Part shown: in pieces, positions 38,925 to 48,412 of the stretch | How positions within the stretch are numbered: the first letter of the stretch is position 1 | How the letters are laid out: every line of letters starts with the position of its first letter | Program-made: the position numbers and the translations under genes | Notes under the pieces: generated by a model | Seen by the model: the letters and a program-made list of their open reading frames with translations, nothing else | The model's database searches: none | What the model was told of the DNA's origin: nothing | Source: Bordetella bronchialis | GTDB taxonomy: Bacteria > Pseudomonadota > Gammaproteobacteria > Burkholderiales > Burkholderiaceae_B | Direction: 5' to 3' | NCBI RefSeq assembly: GCF_001676705.1 | Contig: NZ_CP016170.1 | Coordinates: 3,038,001 to 3,102,000 of the forward strand | Length of the DNA: 64,000 nt

Positions 38925-41900
38925 CTAGAAGCGCCAGGCGACGTTCACGCTGCCGGCATTCTGCCGGTTGCCGCCGCCGAACTGGCCGTTGTAGGCCACG
39001 CCCACGGTCGTCGATTTCGTCATCCGCATGTCGATGCCCAATTCCATGACGGCCGCGTCCTGCGCGATGGGAGCCCCGGCCACCGTGAAGGGCACGCTGT
39101 CGCCGAAGGCCATGGCGGTGGTGGGATCGAGGTCGCCGAAGGCATGGCGCCAGCCGGCCATGGCGTGCACGCGGCCCGGCATGCCGGCGGACTCGAAGCG
39201 CAGCTCGCCGCGCAGGCCCAGCGTCGTGGTGGTGACGGCGCTGCGCTCGCTTTCGCCGTCCAGGGCGGCCGCGCCCCCGGACTCGGAAAACCCGCGCACG
39301 CGCAGGTCGCTGTAGTTGACGCCGGCGAAGGGCTGCACCGCCATGCGGTCCGCCACGGGCAGGCGATAGCCCAGCTCGGTGAAGACCTGCGCGGTGCCGG
39401 CGTGATAACCGGCCTTGAGCGTGTCGGCCAATCCGGCGGCGGAGGTATCGCGGCGCGTATCGATATCGTGCCAGGTGTAGGCCGCGCCCGCGGTCCATTC
39501 GATGTGTCCCGGACCGGCCTGGAAGGCCTTGCCGCCAAAGACCGTGGCGCTGTAGCTGTCCACGTCCGCGGTGGCGGCGCGGTCGCGCAGCGACACATGG
39601 CTGCCGGTATAGCCCAGCGCCCCGCCCAGGCGCCAGCCGGCGCCGACCGCGTGGTCGCCGCCCACGAACAGGCCGCCGTCCGATTGCCGCACGCGTCCCG
39701 CGTTGCCATTGCCGTCCAGCGTGCGCCAGCTGCCGAAGACCTCGGCCCATAGCGGCTGCGCGGCCGACCGCGGCATCGCGGTCGCGCCCAATGCCGCCGA
39801 TCCCGCTTGTGCCACGGGGTCGCCGGCCGTCTGGCCGGCGTACAGGTTTGCGCGCAGATGCGCCGTGGGCAGGCTGGCCACCGTGTCTCCCACGCCGTGC
39901 AGCACGGCGATGGTGCTGGCGTGGATCTCGCCGGACAGGGCGTCGAATGCCGCCGGCGGCGCGCCCGCCGGCAGGTTCAGCACCTGGGAATAGACGGCGT
40001 TGTCCTGCGGCAGCGTCTGTACGGCATTGGCGACGGCGCGCTGGTTGCGCGTGTCGGCGGCATCGGCGAAGCGGATCGGCCGCGTGCCGCCGCCATTACC
40101 ATTGCCGCCGTTGCCGCCGTTGCCGCCGCCCCCGTCGCCGCCGTTGCCCGAGCCGCCGTCGCCCGGCACCTGCTTCAACTGCATCCGCAAGGTGACGTCG
40201 TTCGCGCCGTAGCTCAGCTTGGGATCCAGGAAGGCGTAGTTGCTGGCCACGCTGTTGAACGCGCCTTGCACGCCCCCTGCCGCCGTCACGATGGTGTAGT
40301 CGCGCGCCAGGCTGAAATTGCCGTCCGGGCCCACATGCACGACCGAACCCGCCAGCGTCGCCGTCCCGCCCACCGCGATGCGGTCGCTGGCCGTGGATGA
40401 AGAATCGACTTCCACCTGATAGACGGCGCCCGGCGCCATGGTGAAGTTGCCGGTGACGTGCAGCGTGCCGATGGAATTGCCCGGCGCCACGATGCCGCCG
40501 GCGCCGATCAGCGCGCCGCCGACCGTGCCCTGCCCGCCCAGCGTGGCGCCGTTGGCCACGGTCACGATGCCCGGCAGGACGGCGCCGGCGTGCGTGGCGT
40601 CGCCCACCACCAGCTTGCCCGCTTGCAGCGCGAAGGCGCCGGTGTACGTACTGGCGCCGTTCAGCGTCAAGGTGGCGGCGCCGGTCTTGGCCAGCGCGCC
40701 GCCGCCGGAAAGCGTGCCTTGCAGCGTCACGGGCTGCGGCGTATCCAGGGTGCCGCCGCCCGCGTCCACCACGATGGGGCGCGCGGTATCGATGGCAGCG
40801 GTATTGCGCAGGGTGCCGCCGTTGAAGGTCAGGGCGCCCGCGACATTGCCCAGCGCCGCGTCCGACCCGACGACCAGCGTGCCGGCGCTCAGGGTCCATG
40901 GCGTGACGCCGGCGTTGACGCCGGTCAACGTCCACGTGCTGGCGCCCGTTTTCTCGTAGCGGTTGAAGCCCTGGTACTGGACCGCGGCGCCCACGGCGCC
41001 GATCTGGCCGACGTTGAAGCTGGTACTGGCATCCGTCGTATCGCCGCCCAGGGCCAGGATATCCCCGCCGAGCGCCGTGCCGCTGGTGCTGACGACATTG
41101 CCCAGGATGGTGGACCCGGCCTGCAGCGTCAGGCGATTCGCACCGCCGCTCAATTCCACGGCATTGGCGCGGCCCCCGCCGAAGCTGCCCATGCCGCCCA
41201 CGATGGTGCCGCTATTGGCGATCGCGACGCCGCCCTGGGCGATCACGCCGGCCCCGCCGGCGCCCCCCGTTGTACCGCTGGGCGTGCCGCCGGCGCCGCC
41301 GAAGATGATACCGGCGTTCTGCAGGGCGCCGCCGGTGTTGACGTAGCGCACGCCGGCCCCGCCATTGCCGGGCTGGCCGCCGGCTCCGACGCTGTCGCCG
41401 CCCCGGCCACCGATGATCTGGCCAGCGGCATCGTTGACGATGGCGGTGCCGTTGGCGACGATGGCATCGCCGCCCGCCCCGGCCGCGGCCGCGCTACCTC
41501 CGTTGCCGCCACGGATGAACGCGGCATTGTTCACCGCCCCGCGGTTGGCGAGCACCGCGGCGCCGCCCAGGCCGCCCGCGCCGCTGGTTGCCTCGCCGCC
41601 CAAGCCGCCCTGTACGGTGCCGGCATTGTTGAACAGCGTGCCGCCATCGACCAGGAAGACGCCCGCGCCGCCACCGCCGCCGCCCGAATCCGGGCCCAGG
41701 CCGGCCGTGCCGCCGGTGCCGCCGACGATCACCGACCCGTCATGCTGGATGGTCCCGCCCGACACCAGTACCAAGGCGGCGCCCCCGCCGCCGCCGCCGC
41801 CGGCGCCGCCCACCGCCGTGGCTCCGTCGCCGCCATTGCCGCCGGAGACGGAGGTCCCATTGGTGAAAAGCACCGCATTCGCGCCGGTCAGGACCAGGCC

Positions 41901-42506
41901 GCCCTGGGCGCCGCTGCCGCCGCCGCCGCCCGCGTCGAAGGAACCGGCGCTGCCGTCCTCGCCGTCCAGCCCGAACATCGCGCTGGATAGCACCGTACTC
42001 GGGTTGCCGCTGACATTGCCCGGCGGCGTCAGGCTATTGCCCCCCGCGCCGCCCGGGGCGGCGAGGCCGCCGGCGCCGCCGCCGCCGCCCCCGCCCGAAC
42101 TGGCATCGCCTCCCAGGACGAGGCCTCCAAGGCCACCCGCAGAACTGGAATTGCCGCCGTTTGCGCCGGGTCCGGCGCCGCCGCCCAGCGGCGCGCCGCT
42201 GCCGCCGCCGCCGCCCGCGACGGGTGTGGCGGGGATCGGCCCCCCTTGTCCGCCGCCACCGCCGCCACCGCCCCCTGCCAGGCCACCCGCACCGCCACCG
42301 CCGCCATTGCCGTTCATGGAATCGCCGCCTTTACCGCCCTGTCCGCCGCCGCTGGCGATATCGCCCGGCGCGGCCCAGGCCGCCATGGGCGCGGCCGCGG
42401 AGAGGACGGCGGCGGCCAGGGCGAGCCTGAGCGTGGACAAGGGCAGATCGGGCGCGCGGCCATGCCGAGGGGTGCGATTTCCTTGCGGGGTGTTTTTCGT
42501 TTTCAT
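38925..42506 (-). CDS. Autotransporter with a glycine-rich passenger
   Basis: The 1193-residue protein has a basic, long signal peptide (cleavage after AWA, about 45) and a passenger of nearly continuous Gly-Gly repeats (about 52-450). A passenger-associated repeat follows (LAKTGAATLTLNGASTYTG), then an Asn/Gly-rich linker (about 805-830) and a C-terminal beta-barrel of about 260 residues ending in WRF. It is a type V secreted outer-membrane protein, probably an adhesin-like surface protein. No protease triad or RGD was noticed. A predicted promoter lies 106 bases upstream. The glycine repeats resemble mycobacterial PGRS composition; this is likely convergence. Confidence 0.92.
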   Translation of the reverse strand: MKTKNTPQGNRTPRHGRAPDLPLSTLRLALAAAVLSAAAPMAAWAAPGDIASGGGQGGKGGDSMNGNGGGGGAGGLAGGGGGGGGGQGGPIPATPVAGGGGGSGAPLGGGAGPGANGGNSSSAGGLGGLVLGGDASSGGGGGGGAGGLAAPGGAGGNSLTPPGNVSGNPSTVLSSAMFGLDGEDGSAGSFDAGGGGGSGAQGGLVLTGANAVLFTNGTSVSGGNGGDGATAVGGAGGGGGGGAALVLVSGGTIQHDGSVIVGGTGGTAGLGPDSGGGGGGAGVFLVDGGTLFNNAGTVQGGLGGEATSGAGGLGGAAVLANRGAVNNAAFIRGGNGGSAAAAGAGGDAIVANGTAIVNDAAGQIIGGRGGDSVGAGGQPGNGGAGVRYVNTGGALQNAGIIFGGAGGTPSGTTGGAGGAGVIAQGGVAIANSGTIVGGMGSFGGGRANAVELSGGANRLTLQAGSTILGNVVSTSGTALGGDILALGGDTTDASTSFNVGQIGAVGAAVQYQGFNRYEKTGASTWTLTGVNAGVTPWTLSAGTLVVGSDAALGNVAGALTFNGGTLRNTAAIDTARPIVVDAGGGTLDTPQPVTLQGTLSGGGALAKTGAATLTLNGASTYTGAFALQAGKLVVGDATHAGAVLPGIVTVANGATLGGQGTVGGALIGAGGIVAPGNSIGTLHVTGNFTMAPGAVYQVEVDSSSTASDRIAVGGTATLAGSVVHVGPDGNFSLARDYTIVTAAGGVQGAFNSVASNYAFLDPKLSYGANDVTLRMQLKQVPGDGGSGNGGDGGGGNGGNGGNGNGGGTRPIRFADAADTRNQRAVANAVQTLPQDNAVYSQVLNLPAGAPPAAFDALSGEIHASTIAVLHGVGDTVASLPTAHLRANLYAGQTAGDPVAQAGSAALGATAMPRSAAQPLWAEVFGSWRTLDGNGNAGRVRQSDGGLFVGGDHAVGAGWRLGGALGYTGSHVSLRDRAATADVDSYSATVFGGKAFQAGPGHIEWTAGAAYTWHDIDTRRDTSAAGLADTLKAGYHAGTAQVFTELGYRLPVADRMAVQPFAGVNYSDLRVRGFSESGGAAALDGESERSAVTTTTLGLRGELRFESAGMPGRVHAMAGWRHAFGDLDPTTAMAFGDSVPFTVAGAPIAQDAAVMELGIDMRMTKSTTVGVAYNGQFGGGNRQNAGSVNVAWRF

Positions 42507-42618
42507 ATCGGCGCAAATAAGCAGCAGCGGCGTGCACGAGCGCGCGCCAGCACTGGGGGGAAGCACTAGGGAAATCCAGCCCACATCGTTCGGTGGGCAG
42601 CGCCGCGGCTTAGGCCGA

Positions 42619-42676: not shown

Positions 42677-44602
42677 TCAGTCAGGGTGGCCACCACCGCT
42701 TGAATCCAGCAGGCGAAACAGATCCTCCACCGGCACCGCCCGGTCCCCGACGATCTTCCAGTAGCGTTTCGCATGATCGCTGGCGAGGAAATCGCGGCGC
42801 CTTTCCAGCCGGCCCGCGCCCACCACGCTTTTGATGACGACGTAGCGCATCTCGCCTTCCGGTCCCAGGATGATCGTCGAGCCCCCGGGATAGTCGAATC
42901 CGGGTCCCTCGGCGGAGGCCTCCACATGGCGGACCTGCGTGATCTCCGCCACCAGGTCGTACACGATCTGCCGGTCGGGTCCGGCACGCCTGGCTATCCG
43001 CACCGATTCGATGCGCGGAATGCTGACGCGGTCTCCCATGAGCCGGGGATCGCCGTTGGCCACCAGGCCGAATTCCTCCAGCCGCTCGGGCACGACCGCA
43101 TACGAGCCCAGGCAGATCGCCTGCCGCCGCAGTTCCTCCGCGGCCGGGCTGCGAGACGGGTCGCCCTGGAAGCGCAGGCTGGCGAAGTCCAGTCCCGGCA
43201 CGGGGGGCAAGGCCATGCGCGGGCCGCGCCACAGCAGCGCATCCGGCGCCAGGTTCGGTACGCTGCGGGGATAGATGTTGCGGCGGCGAAACGCCTCCAC
43301 CAAGGCGCCGCGGTAGTCCCAGGGGTCGTCCGGGACCAGCCCGTGGTCCGCCGTGATAAGCGCCCGCAGATAGTCCCCCAGCGTGATGCCCACGGGCGGG
43401 CAGTAGTCGATCGCCCGGATGCAGATGCCCAGGAACTGGCCGGCCAGCTGGCTGGCCTTTTCCGCCAGGATCGTTTGCAGGTCATAGGGAAGCTCCCCCG
43501 GCGCCAGCACGCCCGTCCCCCCGCTGGCCAGGCGGACATACTGGCGGGTCTTGCGTTCGAATACCGTGATGAAGGCCTCGACGACCGCGCGGACCAGCAG
43601 CAGGCCCATGTCGTGCGCCTCCATGCCCGGGTGGTAGGTCGTTGGTTCCGCGCCTTCCACGACGTCCCGCAAGGGCCGCGCACGGCCCGCCGCATAACCG
43701 AACTGGTGGCCCAGCTCGGTCAGCAGGTCGGCCTGGCGCAGCATGCCGCGGCTGCGCCGTATCGCGGTACGGACGATTTCCGGATAGCTGAAATGCTGGA
43801 ACACGGCCACGAGATCGGCGAAGCCCTCGTGGAATCCCAGGACATCGGTGCCCGAAGGAATGCGGAAGTTGGGCCGCAACCCGTCCAGCAGCGCGTGCGT
43901 CAGCTCGTGTGAAACGATGTCGTGCGACAGGCAGGTAAAGACGAAGCCGCCCGGCAAGGAGTTGTCGGTCGGGTGGTCGCTGGCGCGGAAATAGCCGAAG
44001 CGCAACTCGCCTTGCCTGCCATCGGTCCAGTAGTACGCGTTGGCCTCCTCCTTGTAGTGCGGCTTGATCCGCAGCCGCCCGACCGTACCGTCCTCGCCGA
44101 ACCCCCACGACAGGTCGCGCCCCAGGGCAAGGCGGAAGCCGGCGTAGACGTTGCTGCAGACCGCGTACACCATCTGCTGGTGAAACCGCGGGTCCGCGAG
44201 CGATGGCGCATAGCCGTCCTCCATGAGCACCCGATGTTCGTCCAGGTTCGCCTGGCGGTAGTTCTGGCCCGTGCTTTCATCGCCGTTGTCCACCTCGAAT
44301 AGCGCGCCGCGCGGCCCGGGCGCCAGGGGCTCATAGGGCACGTTCACCGTGGCCACCGCGCCGTCCAGGCGGTGCGTCGCCGGGTCGATCGAGAAGATGC
44401 GCAGCGGCCGGTACAAAGGGTCCCGGTCGCTGCGCCGGTAAGGCGTGGCCGCGCCGCGCAGCAGCTGGCGGCCCAGCGTGTAGCGGCCGCCGGTCTCCGC
44501 GCCGGCCGCATCGCCTTGGCCGCCATCGGCCCCGCGCCGCGCGACGCGGCTCTGTACCTGCGCCGCGACGGCCTCGGTGGTTTCGGGTGGATAGTGCGGC
44601 AT
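42677..44602 (-). CDS. Gluzincin-type zinc metallopeptidase
   Basis: The 641-residue protein has the zinc motif HELTH (His232, Glu233, His236) and, 23 residues on, GFHEGFADLV with Glu259 as the likely third ligand. This is the gluzincin pattern seen in the thermolysin (M4) clan, where NEGxSD is typical. The N-terminal half and the C-terminal third (about 480-641) match nothing I recognise. There is no signal peptide, so it looks cytoplasmic. It starts 27 bases after the caspase-fusion gene on the same strand and is probably co-expressed with it. Substrate unknown. Confidence 0.8.
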   Translation of the reverse strand: MPHYPPETTEAVAAQVQSRVARRGADGGQGDAAGAETGGRYTLGRQLLRGAATPYRRSDRDPLYRPLRIFSIDPATHRLDGAVATVNVPYEPLAPGPRGALFEVDNGDESTGQNYRQANLDEHRVLMEDGYAPSLADPRFHQQMVYAVCSNVYAGFRLALGRDLSWGFGEDGTVGRLRIKPHYKEEANAYYWTDGRQGELRFGYFRASDHPTDNSLPGGFVFTCLSHDIVSHELTHALLDGLRPNFRIPSGTDVLGFHEGFADLVAVFQHFSYPEIVRTAIRRSRGMLRQADLLTELGHQFGYAAGRARPLRDVVEGAEPTTYHPGMEAHDMGLLLVRAVVEAFITVFERKTRQYVRLASGGTGVLAPGELPYDLQTILAEKASQLAGQFLGICIRAIDYCPPVGITLGDYLRALITADHGLVPDDPWDYRGALVEAFRRRNIYPRSVPNLAPDALLWRGPRMALPPVPGLDFASLRFQGDPSRSPAAEELRRQAICLGSYAVVPERLEEFGLVANGDPRLMGDRVSIPRIESVRIARRAGPDRQIVYDLVAEITQVRHVEASAEGPGFDYPGGSTIILGPEGEMRYVVIKSVVGAGRLERRRDFLASDHAKRYWKIVGDRAVPVEDLFRLLDSSGGGHPD

Positions 44603-44629: not shown

Positions 44630-47527
44630 TCAAGGCAGCAAGGGACGTCCGTACATCGCGCCGACGGACACCATGGGCTGCCCCGCGATGCCATTGACCG
44701 CGGGCACCGCCGCGCCCAGCGGCTGCAGCAGCGGCGCCTGCAGCATCGCGGGCGCGCAATCGAGGCGCGGGTGCTGGGAAGGCTGCGGACCGAATTCCGC
44801 GATGACGCGGCGGATGAAGTCCTCGTGCGTCATCCCGTTGATCCCCCGGCGAAGTACCTGCGTGGCGCGCAAGGTGAAATCGCCCTGCCCGTCCCGCTCC
44901 CATGCGACCTCGTCATCGCGGCAGGCCGCGAAGGCGACATTGCGCATGCGTTCGGTCCCGCCGCTGTCCATGCGCACCGTCGTGGCATGCTCGATGCCTC
45001 GAGCGCCGCCGGCCAGCGCGCGGCGAAAGTCCCGGTGCGCCTGCTCCAGTTCCGGCGTGGGCCGTACGTACCTGGGTTTGGCCAGCGTTCCGACGTGGCG
45101 GCTGCCGCCCAGGCCGCCCGGCGAGGTACCCACCGCGAAACGGGTATTGGTGCCCGAATGGCAGCAGTCGATGAAGCAGGTGAAATTGACGCCCTCGGGC
45201 ACGGCGGCGAATATTTCCGCGATGTCGTCGTCGATATAGAGCTGCCCTTCGGCGAAGTTCACCGGGCACAGGGCCTCGTCGCGGCGATCGAGTTCGTCGC
45301 CGTTGATGTCCTCCACGTGGGTGCCGTGCCCGGAAAACTGGAAGACGATCACGTCGCCGGGCCGGCTGTCGCGCACCATGGCGCGCAATTCGGCGTCGAT
45401 GGCGCCACGGGTGGCCGCGCCGTCCAGCAGCATGCGCGTGCCGAAGCCCAGGCCGGCCAGCGTCTGCGACCACAACCTGGCGTCCGGGACGCAGGCCTGC
45501 AGGCGATGCTCCGGGTCGGGATAGGCGTTGATGCCGACGCACAGGGCGACACGCCGGCCCGAGGCAAGCGACACGCCGCCATGGTCGAAGCCGTTGGACC
45601 CGGAAACGGTTGCCTGGATGTGCGCCCCGCCGTTCAAGGCGGGGCGCTGGGCGCCGCGATGGAACTCGAGCACTTCCTCCGGCCAGGTGACGCCCTCTTT
45701 CCAGCCGTCGGCCTGCGGACCTTCGCGCGGGCGCGGATACTCCACGATGGGATCGCTGTCGCCCTTTTCCAGGATGCGGCGTACCGTGCTGTTCAGCGTG
45801 GGGGCATCGTCGTCGAAGCCGCCGTGCGATGTCGCGGTACTGCTTGCGCTGCCGGACTCCGTGTCGGTGCGGGACCACACGATCTCGCCCACGCCCGCGC
45901 CGTTGCCGCTCAGGCCGAACAGCTCACGCAGGCCGGGATCCTCGCGCAGGCAGTCCTCCAGCCCCAGGATGGCCGCGTCGCGGTCCTTTTCCAATGCGCG
46001 CGAGACAAGGTACAGCAAGGACTTGTGATAGACGTGCGCGCAGTGGTCCTTTCTTTCCAGATAGCGGTTCAGCGTGAACAGCGTCAGGCGGTTCACCGCC
46101 TTGCCCGGCCCGATGTGGTCGCCCAGCAGCCGCTTGAACGTGTCCACGCGTATCGCCGGCGCATAGAAATGCGCCGACTCGAACGGCGGCACGCCGTGCT
46201 CGCGCGCTGCCGCCAGGAAATGCGCATGAAAGATCGACCCGGCGCTGTGTCCCACCGCGTGCAGCGCGATCTTGCCCTCCTGGCCCTTGCAGAACGCGGC
46301 CAGGCGCTGCGCCACGTACCAGGCCGCGCCCACGTCGCCATCGGCGGCGCCCGGCGGGTCGACGGCGTGCTCGGCGTTGGATTTCATCCCCGCCCAGATA
46401 TCCGGACCGCGCAGCGCCCGGGCCGACAGCTCGATGACGGGGTCCAGCGTGAAGTCGAAGACATCCCGCCGGCCTTCCGGTCCCTGGCTGGCACGGCGCA
46501 GCAGATTGCCCAGGGTTTCGAACAGCCCCGTCTGCCAGACGAAATAGACCGGATAGATGTCGTTCCTGCGCCACCAGTCGATATGCTTGACCGCGATATC
46601 CAGTCCGGACGCTTCGTCCACCAGCCCGCCGTGCGCATAGAACAGAAGCCGCAGTTTGCGCCTGGCATGCTCGGCCTGCTTCAAGGCAGTGGGCAGGTGC
46701 ACATCGAAGATGGCGTCCACATCGGCCTTTGACGTGGTGGCGATCCCGTCCGCCGAGAACCGCCCCATCGACGTGTTGACCAGGTGCGGCTGCAAGGCCG
46801 CCAGCAGGTCCGGCGGAAAGCGGTCCGCGCCTTCGCCGCCCCGCTCCATCGTCCAGCCGATGTCGCGCTGGTCGCCATGCTGGTGTTCCGCATCGGCCGG
46901 CTCGACACCGGCGGGCACCCGCAGCAGCGTGGACATGGCGCGTTGCAGTTCCGCCATTTCCTCGTAGGGGAACGGACCGTCGAATACCGCGCGGCTGGAC
47001 GCCCGGGTCGCGCGCATGGCATCCACTCGGGCCTTGACATCGGCGTAATCGATGCTGCTGCCGGGGCAGCTTTTCGAGGACATGCTGTTGTGGAACGCCA
47101 GCGCGCTGGTGGGCAGGTCGAAGCGGTTCAGCACCAGGGCGGTGACTTCCAGCGCCGCGTCGCGCTGCGGCCCGTCGAAGACATCGCGTCCCACATCGAA
47201 ATCCCCGATCATTTCGAACATGAAGGGGCCGACCTGGCTGTTGCCGTTATGGCCCGCGGCGCTGGCCGGCGGCAGGTTCCAGTTCCGGCCCAGCCAGACC
47301 ATGCCTTCGGGATCGATGGTCAGGTGCTGCGCGATATCGCGCCAGCCATTGACCTGGGTATGGTGCCGCCACATGCCGACGATGGTGTCGTGCCCGCGGA
47401 AGTCGCGCCGCGTGGGACGCCAGGTGTGGTGCATGTGGACGGCGTTGATGCGGCGTTCGAAGGGAAACCGGTCCAGGATCTGGGCGAACTGCTCGACGGA
47501 AAGCCGTCGGAATGTTGGCGTCGACAT
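44630..47527 (-). CDS. Fusion: amidase/PGRP-like, alpha/beta-hydrolase-like and caspase domains
   Basis: The 965-residue protein has three enzyme-like modules. Residues about 28-160 resemble T7-lysozyme/PGRP amidases: His33, His146, Lys152 and Cys154 fit the zinc and catalytic positions, but the tyrosine of GYHF is replaced by Gln67. About 290-460 looks like an alpha/beta hydrolase (YAHGG oxyanion turn, GHSAGS nucleophile Ser428). About 658-870 is a C14 caspase/metacaspase with His734 in FSGHG and Cys789 in IDCCHSG. No signal peptide is present. GGAGGAGG precedes ATG 47527. It heads an operon with a metallopeptidase gene. The role is unknown. Confidence 0.85.
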   Translation of the reverse strand: MSTPTFRRLSVEQFAQILDRFPFERRINAVHMHHTWRPTRRDFRGHDTIVGMWRHHTQVNGWRDIAQHLTIDPEGMVWLGRNWNLPPASAAGHNGNSQVGPFMFEMIGDFDVGRDVFDGPQRDAALEVTALVLNRFDLPTSALAFHNSMSSKSCPGSSIDYADVKARVDAMRATRASSRAVFDGPFPYEEMAELQRAMSTLLRVPAGVEPADAEHQHGDQRDIGWTMERGGEGADRFPPDLLAALQPHLVNTSMGRFSADGIATTSKADVDAIFDVHLPTALKQAEHARRKLRLLFYAHGGLVDEASGLDIAVKHIDWWRRNDIYPVYFVWQTGLFETLGNLLRRASQGPEGRRDVFDFTLDPVIELSARALRGPDIWAGMKSNAEHAVDPPGAADGDVGAAWYVAQRLAAFCKGQEGKIALHAVGHSAGSIFHAHFLAAAREHGVPPFESAHFYAPAIRVDTFKRLLGDHIGPGKAVNRLTLFTLNRYLERKDHCAHVYHKSLLYLVSRALEKDRDAAILGLEDCLREDPGLRELFGLSGNGAGVGEIVWSRTDTESGSASSTATSHGGFDDDAPTLNSTVRRILEKGDSDPIVEYPRPREGPQADGWKEGVTWPEEVLEFHRGAQRPALNGGAHIQATVSGSNGFDHGGVSLASGRRVALCVGINAYPDPEHRLQACVPDARLWSQTLAGLGFGTRMLLDGAATRGAIDAELRAMVRDSRPGDVIVFQFSGHGTHVEDINGDELDRRDEALCPVNFAEGQLYIDDDIAEIFAAVPEGVNFTCFIDCCHSGTNTRFAVGTSPGGLGGSRHVGTLAKPRYVRPTPELEQAHRDFRRALAGGARGIEHATTVRMDSGGTERMRNVAFAACRDDEVAWERDGQGDFTLRATQVLRRGINGMTHEDFIRRVIAEFGPQPSQHPRLDCAPAMLQAPLLQPLGAAVPAVNGIAGQPMVSVGAMYGRPLLP

Positions 47528-47851
47528 AACACCTCCTCCACAGAAGCATCGTCGTTGGTCATACGCAGGGCCCTGACGGCACCACACGCGCCGACGCCAT
47601 GCCCCGTTGCTTCAAGCGCTGGCGGCCGGATCCAGGCCGGGCTGCCACGGCTTTTGCGGGAGATAGTCGCCAGGGAAGGATGATGGAAGCATCGTTATGT
47701 GCACGATCATAGGGCAGTCCCGACGGAGGCTTCTAAGCCTAAGGATGGTGTACGGATGCGGTAAGGCGCGCCATCCGGCCACGCGCGGCGGCCTGGCGCG
47801 CGCGGTATCGACCGGGGGCCGCCCCGGCGGCGGTGTCGGCGCGATGTGGAG
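47528..47851. other. Intergenic region before the caspase operon
   Basis: This 324-base stretch holds no convincing gene. On the minus strand TATGAT (plus 47706-47711) is a good -10 for the caspase operon, but no good -35 accompanies it. An inverted repeat at 47727-47740 overlaps the -35 position. That suggests activator-dependent or repressed transcription. Confidence 0.5.
47727..47740. promoter_or_regulatory. Inverted repeat over the -35 region of the caspase operon
   Basis: AGGCTT and AAGCCT flank a two-base centre. It lies about 35 bases upstream of the start predicted from TATGAT (47706-47711, minus strand). It could be an operator for the neighbouring LuxR-type regulator or another factor. 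Confidence 0.4.
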
Positions 47852-48412
47852 CTACGCGGCGGAAAAGCTCATTAACTTATGGATCAGCCCCGCCGAGGTC
47901 TTCGCGCCGAATTTATTCATCAGCCTGGCGCGATACATCTCCACGGTGCGGGGGCTCAGCCCCAGTTGCCGCGCGATTTCCTTGCTGGTCTTGCCTTCGG
48001 CGATCAGCGCGGCGATCTCGCGTTCGCGCGCGCTCAGGCCGGACGCCACGGGGCGCGTGGCGCTCAGGTCCTCGAAGGCCCAGATGACGGCGGCGTGGGG
48101 ATCTTCCGGCACCAGCGCGCGGCCGGTCGCGTGGCACCAGAACAGCTCGCCTTCGCGGCGTTTCATGATGCGTTCGTCGGCATAGGTGCCGGCGGCGCCG
48201 AACGAGGCCAGCAGGCGCCGGCCGGTACGCACGAACTCCTGCGCGGTGGGATACAGGATCTCGAACGAGATCCCGTCCAGGGATTGCCGGCCATAGCCGA
48301 ACATGTCTTCCATCGCCAGGTTGGCGATGCGTATGACCCGGTTGTGGGAGACGCACATCCCCACCGGCGCGCGCATCAGGACTTCCTTGTAATCGATGTC
48401 TGGCGAACTCAT
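47852..48412 (-). CDS. PAS-LuxR (NarL/FixJ-type) transcriptional regulator
   Basis: The 186-residue protein has an N-terminal PAS domain (about 8-115, ILMRAPVGMCVSHNR-like start, FWCHATGRAL) and a C-terminal LuxR helix-turn-helix (about 122-180, LSAREREIAALIAEGKTSKEIARQLGLS). It lacks a receiver, so PAS sensing replaces phosphorylation. It diverges from the cupin gene (137 bases) with a CGTA-N4-TACG inverted repeat between them, a plausible operator. The effector is unknown. Confidence 0.9.
   Translation of the reverse strand: MSSPDIDYKEVLMRAPVGMCVSHNRVIRIANLAMEDMFGYGRQSLDGISFEILYPTAQEFVRTGRRLLASFGAAGTYADERIMKRREGELFWCHATGRALVPEDPHAAVIWAFEDLSATRPVASGLSAREREIAALIAEGKTSKEIARQLGLSPRTVEMYRARLMNKFGAKTSAGLIHKLMSFSAA

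What the first reader, a model, noticed from the sequence alone, without database searches (positions are those of the whole stretch)
44630..47527. Three enzyme-like modules in one protein: amidase/PGRP-like, alpha/beta-hydrolase-like and caspase
Seen directly: zinc-amidase residues (His33, His146, Lys152, Cys154), a GHSAGS serine elbow (Ser428) and a caspase His734/Cys789 pair in one 965-residue soluble protein. Family knowledge: caspase domains in bacteria often act in cell death or immunity, and PGRP/amidase domains bind or cut peptidoglycan. The combination is one I do not recognise. Inference: a cell-wall or phage-lysin sensor coupled to proteolytic output.
Basis: partly seen in the sequence, partly recalled or inferred. 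Interest (0 to 1): 0.86.

Follow-up and report, generated by a model that had tools for sequence, protein, structure and literature searches.

The report
Caspase–amidase–hydrolase protein paired with metalloprotease
A bacterial gene pair makes a cell-wall-cutting, ester-hydrolase-like and caspase enzyme in one protein plus a thermolysin-like protease; it recurs in bacteria of several phyla and looks like a self-releasing set of destructive enzymes whose job is not known.

Summary
In detail: one 965-residue protein carries a zinc PGRP/T7-type amidase, an alpha/beta-hydrolase-like module with an invariant Ser-Asp-His set, and a metacaspase-type caspase. The next gene (42677-44602) is a thermolysin-fold metallopeptidase without a significant Pfam match, found beside the caspase gene in 42 of 50 testable genome loci. 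Caspase plus metallopeptidase is the stable core; amidase or hydrolase is missing in a few relatives. Conserved arginines sit in the disordered amidase-hydrolase linker, the caspase p20/p10 loop and the metallopeptidase's N-terminal tail, linker and tail sharing SR(D/G), and the caspase keeps most of the pocket that reads Arg/Lys. My best reading, inferred and not shown, is a latent demolition kit: the caspase cuts itself and its partner, freeing the amidase and hydrolase. Prior art: Amidase_2+metacaspase proteins were listed in 2012, and caspase/alpha-beta-hydrolase pairing in other conflict systems in 2020. I rate it a new variant of a known kind.

The parts
44630..47527 (-). 965-aa protein: amidase (about 24-170), alpha/beta-hydrolase-like module (about 241-600), metacaspase-type caspase (656-938)
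47018..47458 (-). zinc amidase / PGRP-like module, residues 24-170; H33, H146, C154 (zinc), E105, K152; invariant Gln67 where the aligned PGRPs have Tyr
46808..47017 (-). partly disordered stretch, residues 171-240, with Arg179, Arg203 and Arg236; the family consensus (S/A)R(D/G)(S/A)G(L/I) falls at column 233, where the window itself has Gly and its Arg lies three residues later
45728..46807 (-). alpha/beta-hydrolase-like module, residues 241-600: HGG 299-301, GHSAG with Ser428, Asp494, His568
45563..45727 (-). disordered linker 601-655 between hydrolase and caspase
   Evidence: pLDDT under 50
44714..45562 (-). caspase domain, residues 656-938: His734, Cys789; pocket residues C679, D682, D787
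44948..45160 (-). p20/p10 loop (790-860) with conserved Arg819 and Arg843, partly disordered
42677..44602 (-). partner gene, 641 aa, M4/M36-like metallopeptidase fold, 27 bases downstream, same strand
43826..43909 (-). HELTH (His232, Glu233, His236) and Glu259 zinc motif of the metallopeptidase
44468..44602 (-). N-terminal tail of the metallopeptidase (low confidence to residue 35) with the conserved TTEAVAAxxQSR peptide (Ser18-Arg19)
47531..47539 (-). Shine-Dalgarno-like GGAGGAGGT before the ATG at 47527

Best explanation
A two-gene cytoplasmic demolition cassette. The caspase gene makes a latent three-enzyme protein and the next gene a thermolysin-like protease. On an unknown trigger the metacaspase-type domain, specific for Arg/Lys, cuts its own p20/p10 loop and the disordered linker before the hydrolase, separating the amidase from the rest, and trims the N-terminal tail of the metallopeptidase at an SR(D/G/E) site. 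The freed peptidoglycan amidase, the ester-hydrolase-like enzyme and two proteases then attack wall, lipids and protein, most likely ending in lysis of the producing cell (programmed or altruistic lysis). Shown: domains, conserved active sites, conserved gene pair, conserved arginines. Inferred: cleavage, order of events, substrates, cell death.
For: Active sites of all four enzymes are conserved (120 listed homologues each, window proteins included: H33/H146/C154, S428/D494/H568, H734/C789 120 of 120; metallopeptidase H232/E233/E259 120, H236 119). The metallopeptidase gene is matched in 42 of 50 testable loci, in 41 on the same strand starting 0-500 bases after the caspase match; the 42nd, L053, overlaps it by 15 bases. 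In 7 of the 8 testable loci without it, no match was found in the whole genome either (several are metagenome bins). L057, whose caspase match is reduced to its end, has none in its genome; L036, whose gene stops before the caspase, has only a distant one (both are bins). Arg sites: in 44 proteins of the deep set (window included) an Arg lies in the last 8 linker residues in 36 (shuffled mean 23.0) and [SAG]R[DGAS] in the last 12 in 24 (shuffled mean 5.8), 0 of 5000 shuffles as high. Arg843: 92 of 120, 42 of 49. Metallopeptidase tail: Arg19 104 of 120, Ser18 98; A[QAEV][ST]R in 21 of 48 in-frame upstream stretches (shuffled mean 2.23, 0 of 2000) or in 18 of 46 called genes' first 60 residues (shuffled mean 1.41, highest of 1000 shuffles 7). 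L008 carries the QSRE unit three times. Three of four residues described for the TbMCA2 substrate pocket (PMC4357240, passages) are kept: C679, D682, D787. The hydrolase goes with proteases elsewhere: with a caspase in actinobacteria, in genes annotated C1 peptidase on plasmids.
Against: No cleavage, lysis or toxicity has been observed. No signal peptide was seen by eye, so the amidase must reach the wall some other way. The window itself departs from the linker consensus (Arg at 236, not 233). 27 of 48 upstream stretches and 28 of 46 called metallopeptidases lack the tail pattern. Residues around Arg843 do not follow SR(D/G): 842 is Ser or Ala in 47 of 120, 844 mostly Ala or Ser. Among 29 conserved columns in poorly conserved stretches Arg (6) is second to Pro (8). 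Arg is frequent in GC-rich genomes, and relatedness inflates all these counts; shuffles do not remove it. S732 is Ser in 48 and Ala in 72 of 120. The fourth calcium-ligand position is Arg796 in 49 of 49, so calcium triggering cannot be assumed. Relatives can lack the amidase (4 uncut loci) or the hydrolase (2 loci), and L033 has lost amidase ligands. A 45%-identical metallopeptidase (L110) has no caspase, hydrolase or amidase match in its 19.9 kb, so the tie is not absolute. No trigger or sensor gene is conserved nearby.
Confidence: 0.4

Rival explanations
1. It is an exported or injected weapon (T6SS, extracellular contractile injection system, or release on lysis) that kills competitors: amidase for the wall, hydrolase for membranes, proteases for the rest.
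For: Enzyme types are those of interbacterial effectors. A metallopeptidase relative in another context (L116) lies near a patatin phospholipase, an MBL-fold gene, a Pvc16 gene and a sheath gene. eCIS marker Pvc16 is in 13 of 50 carrier genomes against 49 of 398 in one background order. One carrier (L043) has a Tle1-like phospholipase gene in the place of the metallopeptidase.
Against: 37 of 50 carrier genomes lack the eCIS marker and 31 of 50 lack T6SS VipB, although some genomes are incomplete; G414 and G422, isolates by their record titles, lack both. The background was one order only while carriers span many phyla; no background was run for VipB. No immunity-like third gene is conserved.
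Confidence: 0.2
2. It is a housekeeping turnover complex: the amidase trims cytoplasmic cell-wall fragments, the hydrolase and proteases recycle other polymers, and the caspase only matures the protein.
For: No phage form and one plasmid record with a full-length match; neighbours are mixed, often metabolic genes (top 25 of 184 families seen); in Polaromonas it sits in a stable neighbourhood. E105 lies where AmpD-type amidases carry a catalytic Glu (recalled).
Against: Patchy presence: a metallopeptidase match in 17 of 399 genomes of one order, 3 of them (the centre genome included) next to the caspase (only up to 3 candidates per genome were scored). Interleaved phyla in the tree fit a dispensable trait. 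A caspase is an odd regulator for recycling.
Confidence: 0.2
3. One reading: the PGRP-like module senses damaged wall or phage lysin products and switches on the caspase as an immune output.
For: The N-terminal module is of the PGRP family. One relative (L033) has lost amidase ligands while keeping the rest, as expected for a binding domain.
Against: Catalytic residues are otherwise kept. Relatives without any amidase match keep caspase and metallopeptidase. No defence-island signal. A cytoplasmic sensor would not see the wall before lysis.
Confidence: 0.12

Closest known systems
Amidase_2 + metacaspase proteins listed by Asplund-Samuelsson et al. 2012 (PMC3501461, passages read)
   Same: Same two Pfam domains; a Polaromonas naphthalenivorans protein is in this family (P0026). 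They suggested a cell-death role, and called a Chitinophaga protein with a GDSL lipase a highly destructive weapon.
   Different: In the passages I saw, they report four sequences and do not mention the alpha/beta hydrolase in between, the metallopeptidase partner or cleavage-site motifs.
EACC1-caspase two-gene system (Kaur et al. 2020, PMC7159879, passages read)
   Same: Two-gene logic with a constant caspase thought to free fused effector domains by auto-proteolysis.
   Different: The caspase scores 22.3 bits against a cut-off of 140 for NF047832; the only conserved partner seen here is a metallopeptidase.
VMAP vWA-MoxR ternary systems (same paper, passages)
   Same: Caspase reported always to go with a neighbouring alpha/beta-hydrolase gene.
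   Different: No conserved MoxR/vWA or other NTPase gene was seen near these loci; here the hydrolase is fused, and amidase and metallopeptidase are added.
Type I/II metacaspases and bacterial orthocaspases
   Same: Fold, His-Cys dyad, acidic pocket residues, conserved arginine in the p20/p10 loop.
   Different: Arg796 at the position of the fourth calcium-ligand Asp; the caspase is carried on a three-enzyme protein.
M4 (thermolysin) and M36 (fungalysin) peptidases
   Different: Too diverged for Pfam; no propeptide domain recognised; no signal peptide seen by eye.

Membership tests
C14 caspase / metacaspase | Pfam Peptidase_C14 above the curated cut-off | tested here: met
   78 bits against 21.4; 30 of 30 members of A1 match at E<=1
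C14 caspase / metacaspase | His-Cys dyad and caspase fold | tested here: met
C14 caspase / metacaspase | Arg/Lys specificity | tested here: inconclusive
   C679, D682, D787 conserved, S732 Ser or Ala (mapped with a 20-residue offset in the PDB chain); no cleavage assay possible
C14 caspase / metacaspase | Four-Asp calcium site of TbMCA2 | tested here: not met
   D750, D766, D767 kept in 47, 49, 47 of 49; the fourth (Asp220) falls on Arg796, 49 of 49. Calcium need is not universal in metacaspases
Type-2 amidase / PGRP | Zinc ligands His, His, Cys | tested here: met
   H33, H146, C154 120 of 120; L033 is a degenerate exception
Type-2 amidase / PGRP | Pfam Amidase_2 match | tested here: inconclusive
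   Window protein: none at E<=1; 24 of the 30 members of A1, best 1.5e-11
Type-2 amidase / PGRP | Catalytic Tyr of T7 lysozyme and amidase-active PGRPs (role recalled) | tested here: not met
   Gln67 in 120 of 120 where the three printed alignments have Tyr; E105 may take over (120 of 120; 35 of 49 in the deep set, 6 gaps)
Type-2 amidase / PGRP | Peptidoglycan cleavage | not testable with these tools
   No assay
Alpha/beta-hydrolase superfamily | Nucleophile elbow and Ser-Asp-His set | tested here: met
   GHSAG; S428 and H568 49 of 49, D494 48 of 49 (the 49 were picked as containing GHSAG, so only H568 and D494 are independent; in the 120 listed all three are 120 of 120). Geometry in the model was not measured
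Alpha/beta-hydrolase superfamily | Profile or fold match to a named family | tested here: inconclusive
   DUF900 in 4 of 30, best E 0.035; no significant PDB sequence match; module not fold-searched alone
M4/M36 metallopeptidase (partner gene) | HExxH plus downstream Glu, thermolysin fold | tested here: met
M4/M36 metallopeptidase (partner gene) | Pfam Peptidase_M4 match | tested here: inconclusive
   None for the window; 3 of 26 members of A2, best 0.024; no PDB sequence match
EACC1-caspase system | EACC1-type caspase | tested here: not met
   NF047832 22.3 bits, cut-off 140
EACC1-caspase system | Adjacent EACC1 membrane gene | tested here: inconclusive
   The only conserved neighbour seen is the metallopeptidase; EACC1 was not searched by profile
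VMAP ternary system | MoxR, vWA and VMAP genes | tested here: inconclusive
   No recurring P-loop neighbour; 13 of 679 called genes by a crude motif
T6SS or eCIS cargo | Injection machinery in the same genome | tested here: not met
   VipB in 19 of 50, Pvc16 in 13 of 50 carrier genomes, i.e. absent from most; some genomes are incomplete; the window's own genome is not held

The most novel reading that the evidence does not exclude
A bacterial lytic cell-death device that needs neither gasdermin nor holin: an Arg-specific caspase stores a peptidoglycan amidase and a lipase-like hydrolase as fused cargo, releases them by self-cleavage, and at the same time licenses a dedicated thermolysin-like protease by cutting a conserved tail peptide. 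It would be a caspase-metalloprotease cascade, kept as a portable gene pair across many phyla.
Probability: 0.28. Interest if true: 0.85.

Novelty: new variant of a known kind. Interest (0 to 1): 0.6.

Why it matters
Bacterial caspases are common but the substrates of most are unknown (general knowledge). Here the likely substrates are written into the same operon: conserved Arg sites in the protein's own linkers and in the partner's tail. That makes the old question of whether bacterial caspases run cell death or lysis directly testable with two genes and a mass spectrometer.

Tried and rejected
Defence-island reading: 150 flanking genes from 50 loci (counted) scanned against PADLOC; of 50 families matched, 25 are shown, the commonest in 3 of 150 and mostly generic enzyme kinds; no random-gene control was run. 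Injection-machine reading: tested with one marker each, modest association for eCIS, no background for T6SS. Phage origin: the viral-contig scan gave 5 loci with caspase pieces only, phages 1 record, caspase piece only; plasmids 119 records with any match, 1 of them covering at least 80% of the protein. Calcium triggering: weakened by Arg796. A conserved third gene: outside the Polaromonas-only contexts no other family came up in more than 5 of 60 loci. PDB profile searches with the hydrolase and the metallopeptidase gave no significant match. The metallopeptidase's best Foldseek hit was weak (4.9e-4). One paper search was left unused.

Rows dropped: L060 and L062-L079 (caspase-only matches) were left out of the locus counts. 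Near-duplicates left out: L020, L004, L006, L007, L040, L057; L020, L004, L006, L007, L025 in the shuffle test; L020 in the tree. Searches used 50 of the 60 loci (left out: L018, L020, L025, L034, L048, L050, L053, L055, L058, L059). The 49 proteins are the window and 48 locus genes that contain HSG and GHSAG and exceed 650 aa, so loci without the hydrolase or with a broken gene are not among them. Locus genes were called by my own codon-usage script, so starts are approximate. L014 and L020 lie in one genome.

Full report

Conservation. The protein search gave 1180 matches at E<=0.001 among 7993 scored candidates; of the 120 listed (the window's own protein included), 119 cover at least 94% of the query and 115 carry both Amidase_2 and C14 annotations. 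Of 60 genome loci with more than the caspase domain (L001-L061 without L060), 49 have amidase, hydrolase and caspase matches, 7 lack the amidase (three of these, L025, L048 and L053, begin at a contig end and may be cut), 2 lack the hydrolase and 2 lack the caspase (one, L037, is cut by a contig end). In a tree of 48 proteins the 46 labelled rows carry ten phylum labels, and these interleave: Pseudomonadota needs 8 changes, and several others are as scattered as their shuffles. That fits horizontal spread, with the caution that many are metagenome bins.

Where the parts go elsewhere. Nine regions around metallopeptidase relatives outside this pair (L110-L118) hold no amidase, hydrolase or caspase match. 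In five of the nine the gene lies beside a patatin-like or Tle1-like phospholipase gene and a metallo-beta-lactamase-fold gene: L112, L114 and L116 by Pfam, L111 and L115 by eye from gene starts. The closest of the nine, L110 (45% identical), lies beside an M43-like peptidase gene instead. The hydrolase occurs with a caspase but no amidase in actinobacteria (L139-L142), two of them with a distant metallopeptidase next door (L139, L140), and with a papain-like segment by eye in L143-L146; four listed rhizobial plasmid matches and one from Eleftheria are annotated 'C1 family peptidase'. So protease plus lipase-like hydrolase is a recurring theme.

Cleavage-site evidence. Three of the four residues described for the substrate pocket of the trypanosome metacaspase TbMCA2 are kept (C679, D682, D787; the fourth is Ser or Ala), which suggests cutting after Arg or Lys. 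In the disordered linker before the hydrolase a column is Arg in 106 of 120, mostly in (S/A)R(D/G)(S/A)G(L/I). In the deeper set, 36 of 44 have Arg within 8 residues of the anchor (shuffled mean 23.0), and 24 of 44 have [SAG]R[DGAS] (shuffled mean 5.8), with no shuffle of 5000 as high. Arg843 in the p20/p10 loop is in 92 of 120 and 42 of 49, but its flanking residues differ from the linker motif. The metallopeptidase's N-terminal tail, of low confidence in the model, carries a peptide like TTEAVAAxAQSR(D/G/E): Arg in 104 of 120. The short pattern A[QAEV][ST]R is in 21 of 48 in-frame upstream stretches (shuffled mean 2.23; such a stretch can run past the true start) and in 18 of 46 called genes (shuffled mean 1.41). 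It is in 0 of 11 more distant metallopeptidases, nine without a caspase nearby and two (L139, L140) beside a hydrolase-caspase gene; these are also more divergent, so this contrast is weak. One tail (L008) repeats the QSRE unit three times. Against this: the window's own linker has its Arg at 236 instead of the consensus column, more than half of the tails lack the pattern, and Arg is second to Pro among conserved positions of the loose stretches. Shuffles do not remove relatedness.

Mechanism and rivals. I read the pair as a latent demolition kit run by an Arg-specific caspase, ending most likely in self-lysis (0.4). Injection machinery is not a fixed companion: eCIS marker in 13 of 50 carrier genomes against 49 of 398 in one order, T6SS VipB in 19 of 50. 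There is no defence-island signal in 150 neighbours and no phage form was found.

Literature. PMC3501461 (passages) lists four Amidase_2+metacaspase proteins, one from Polaromonas naphthalenivorans, and suggests cell death. PMC7159879 (passages) reports caspase with neighbouring alpha/beta-hydrolase genes in VMAP systems and proposes self-cleaving EACC1 caspase systems. PMC8195603 (passages) and PMC4933709 (passages) showed no mention of amidase in their main text. PMC4357240 and PMC9622860 (passages) supplied the metacaspase pocket and calcium residues. I saw no description of the metallopeptidase pair or of the cleavage motif in these searches, which cover open-licence papers only.

Noticed in passing
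window 38925-42584 (-): Glycine-rich autotransporter with PATR repeats and a full beta-barrel, downstream of the pair on the same strand; it did not come up as a conserved neighbour in the relatives examined.
   Followed up: no
window 47852-48412 (-): PAS-LuxR regulator upstream of the caspase gene on the same strand; LuxR-type neighbours appear in 4 of 150 flanking genes elsewhere.
   Followed up: partly
L116:6543-17074: Metallopeptidase relative with patatin and MBL-fold genes, with Pvc16 and tail-sheath genes a few kilobases away, i.e. possibly eCIS cargo.
   Followed up: partly
L027:12877-16152: 1091-aa protein with LCAT-like, M17 N-terminal and CHAT domains next to the caspase gene in Hymenobacter, another protease-plus-lipase design.
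   Followed up: no
L017:9992-14965: Azospirillum version: amidase-hydrolase-caspase continued by a C-terminal stretch with a CHAT-like match below the Pfam cut-off (1657 aa).
   Followed up: no
L018:246-2141: Animal-type haem peroxidase gene just upstream of the caspase gene in a Chloroflexi bin.
   Followed up: no
L033:10001-10516: Amidase module that has lost a zinc His and Cys while the other modules remain.
   Followed up: no
L141:10506-12740, L142:10455-12506: Actinobacterial hydrolase-caspase genes with an uncharacterised 683-744-aa gene immediately upstream on the same strand.
   Followed up: no
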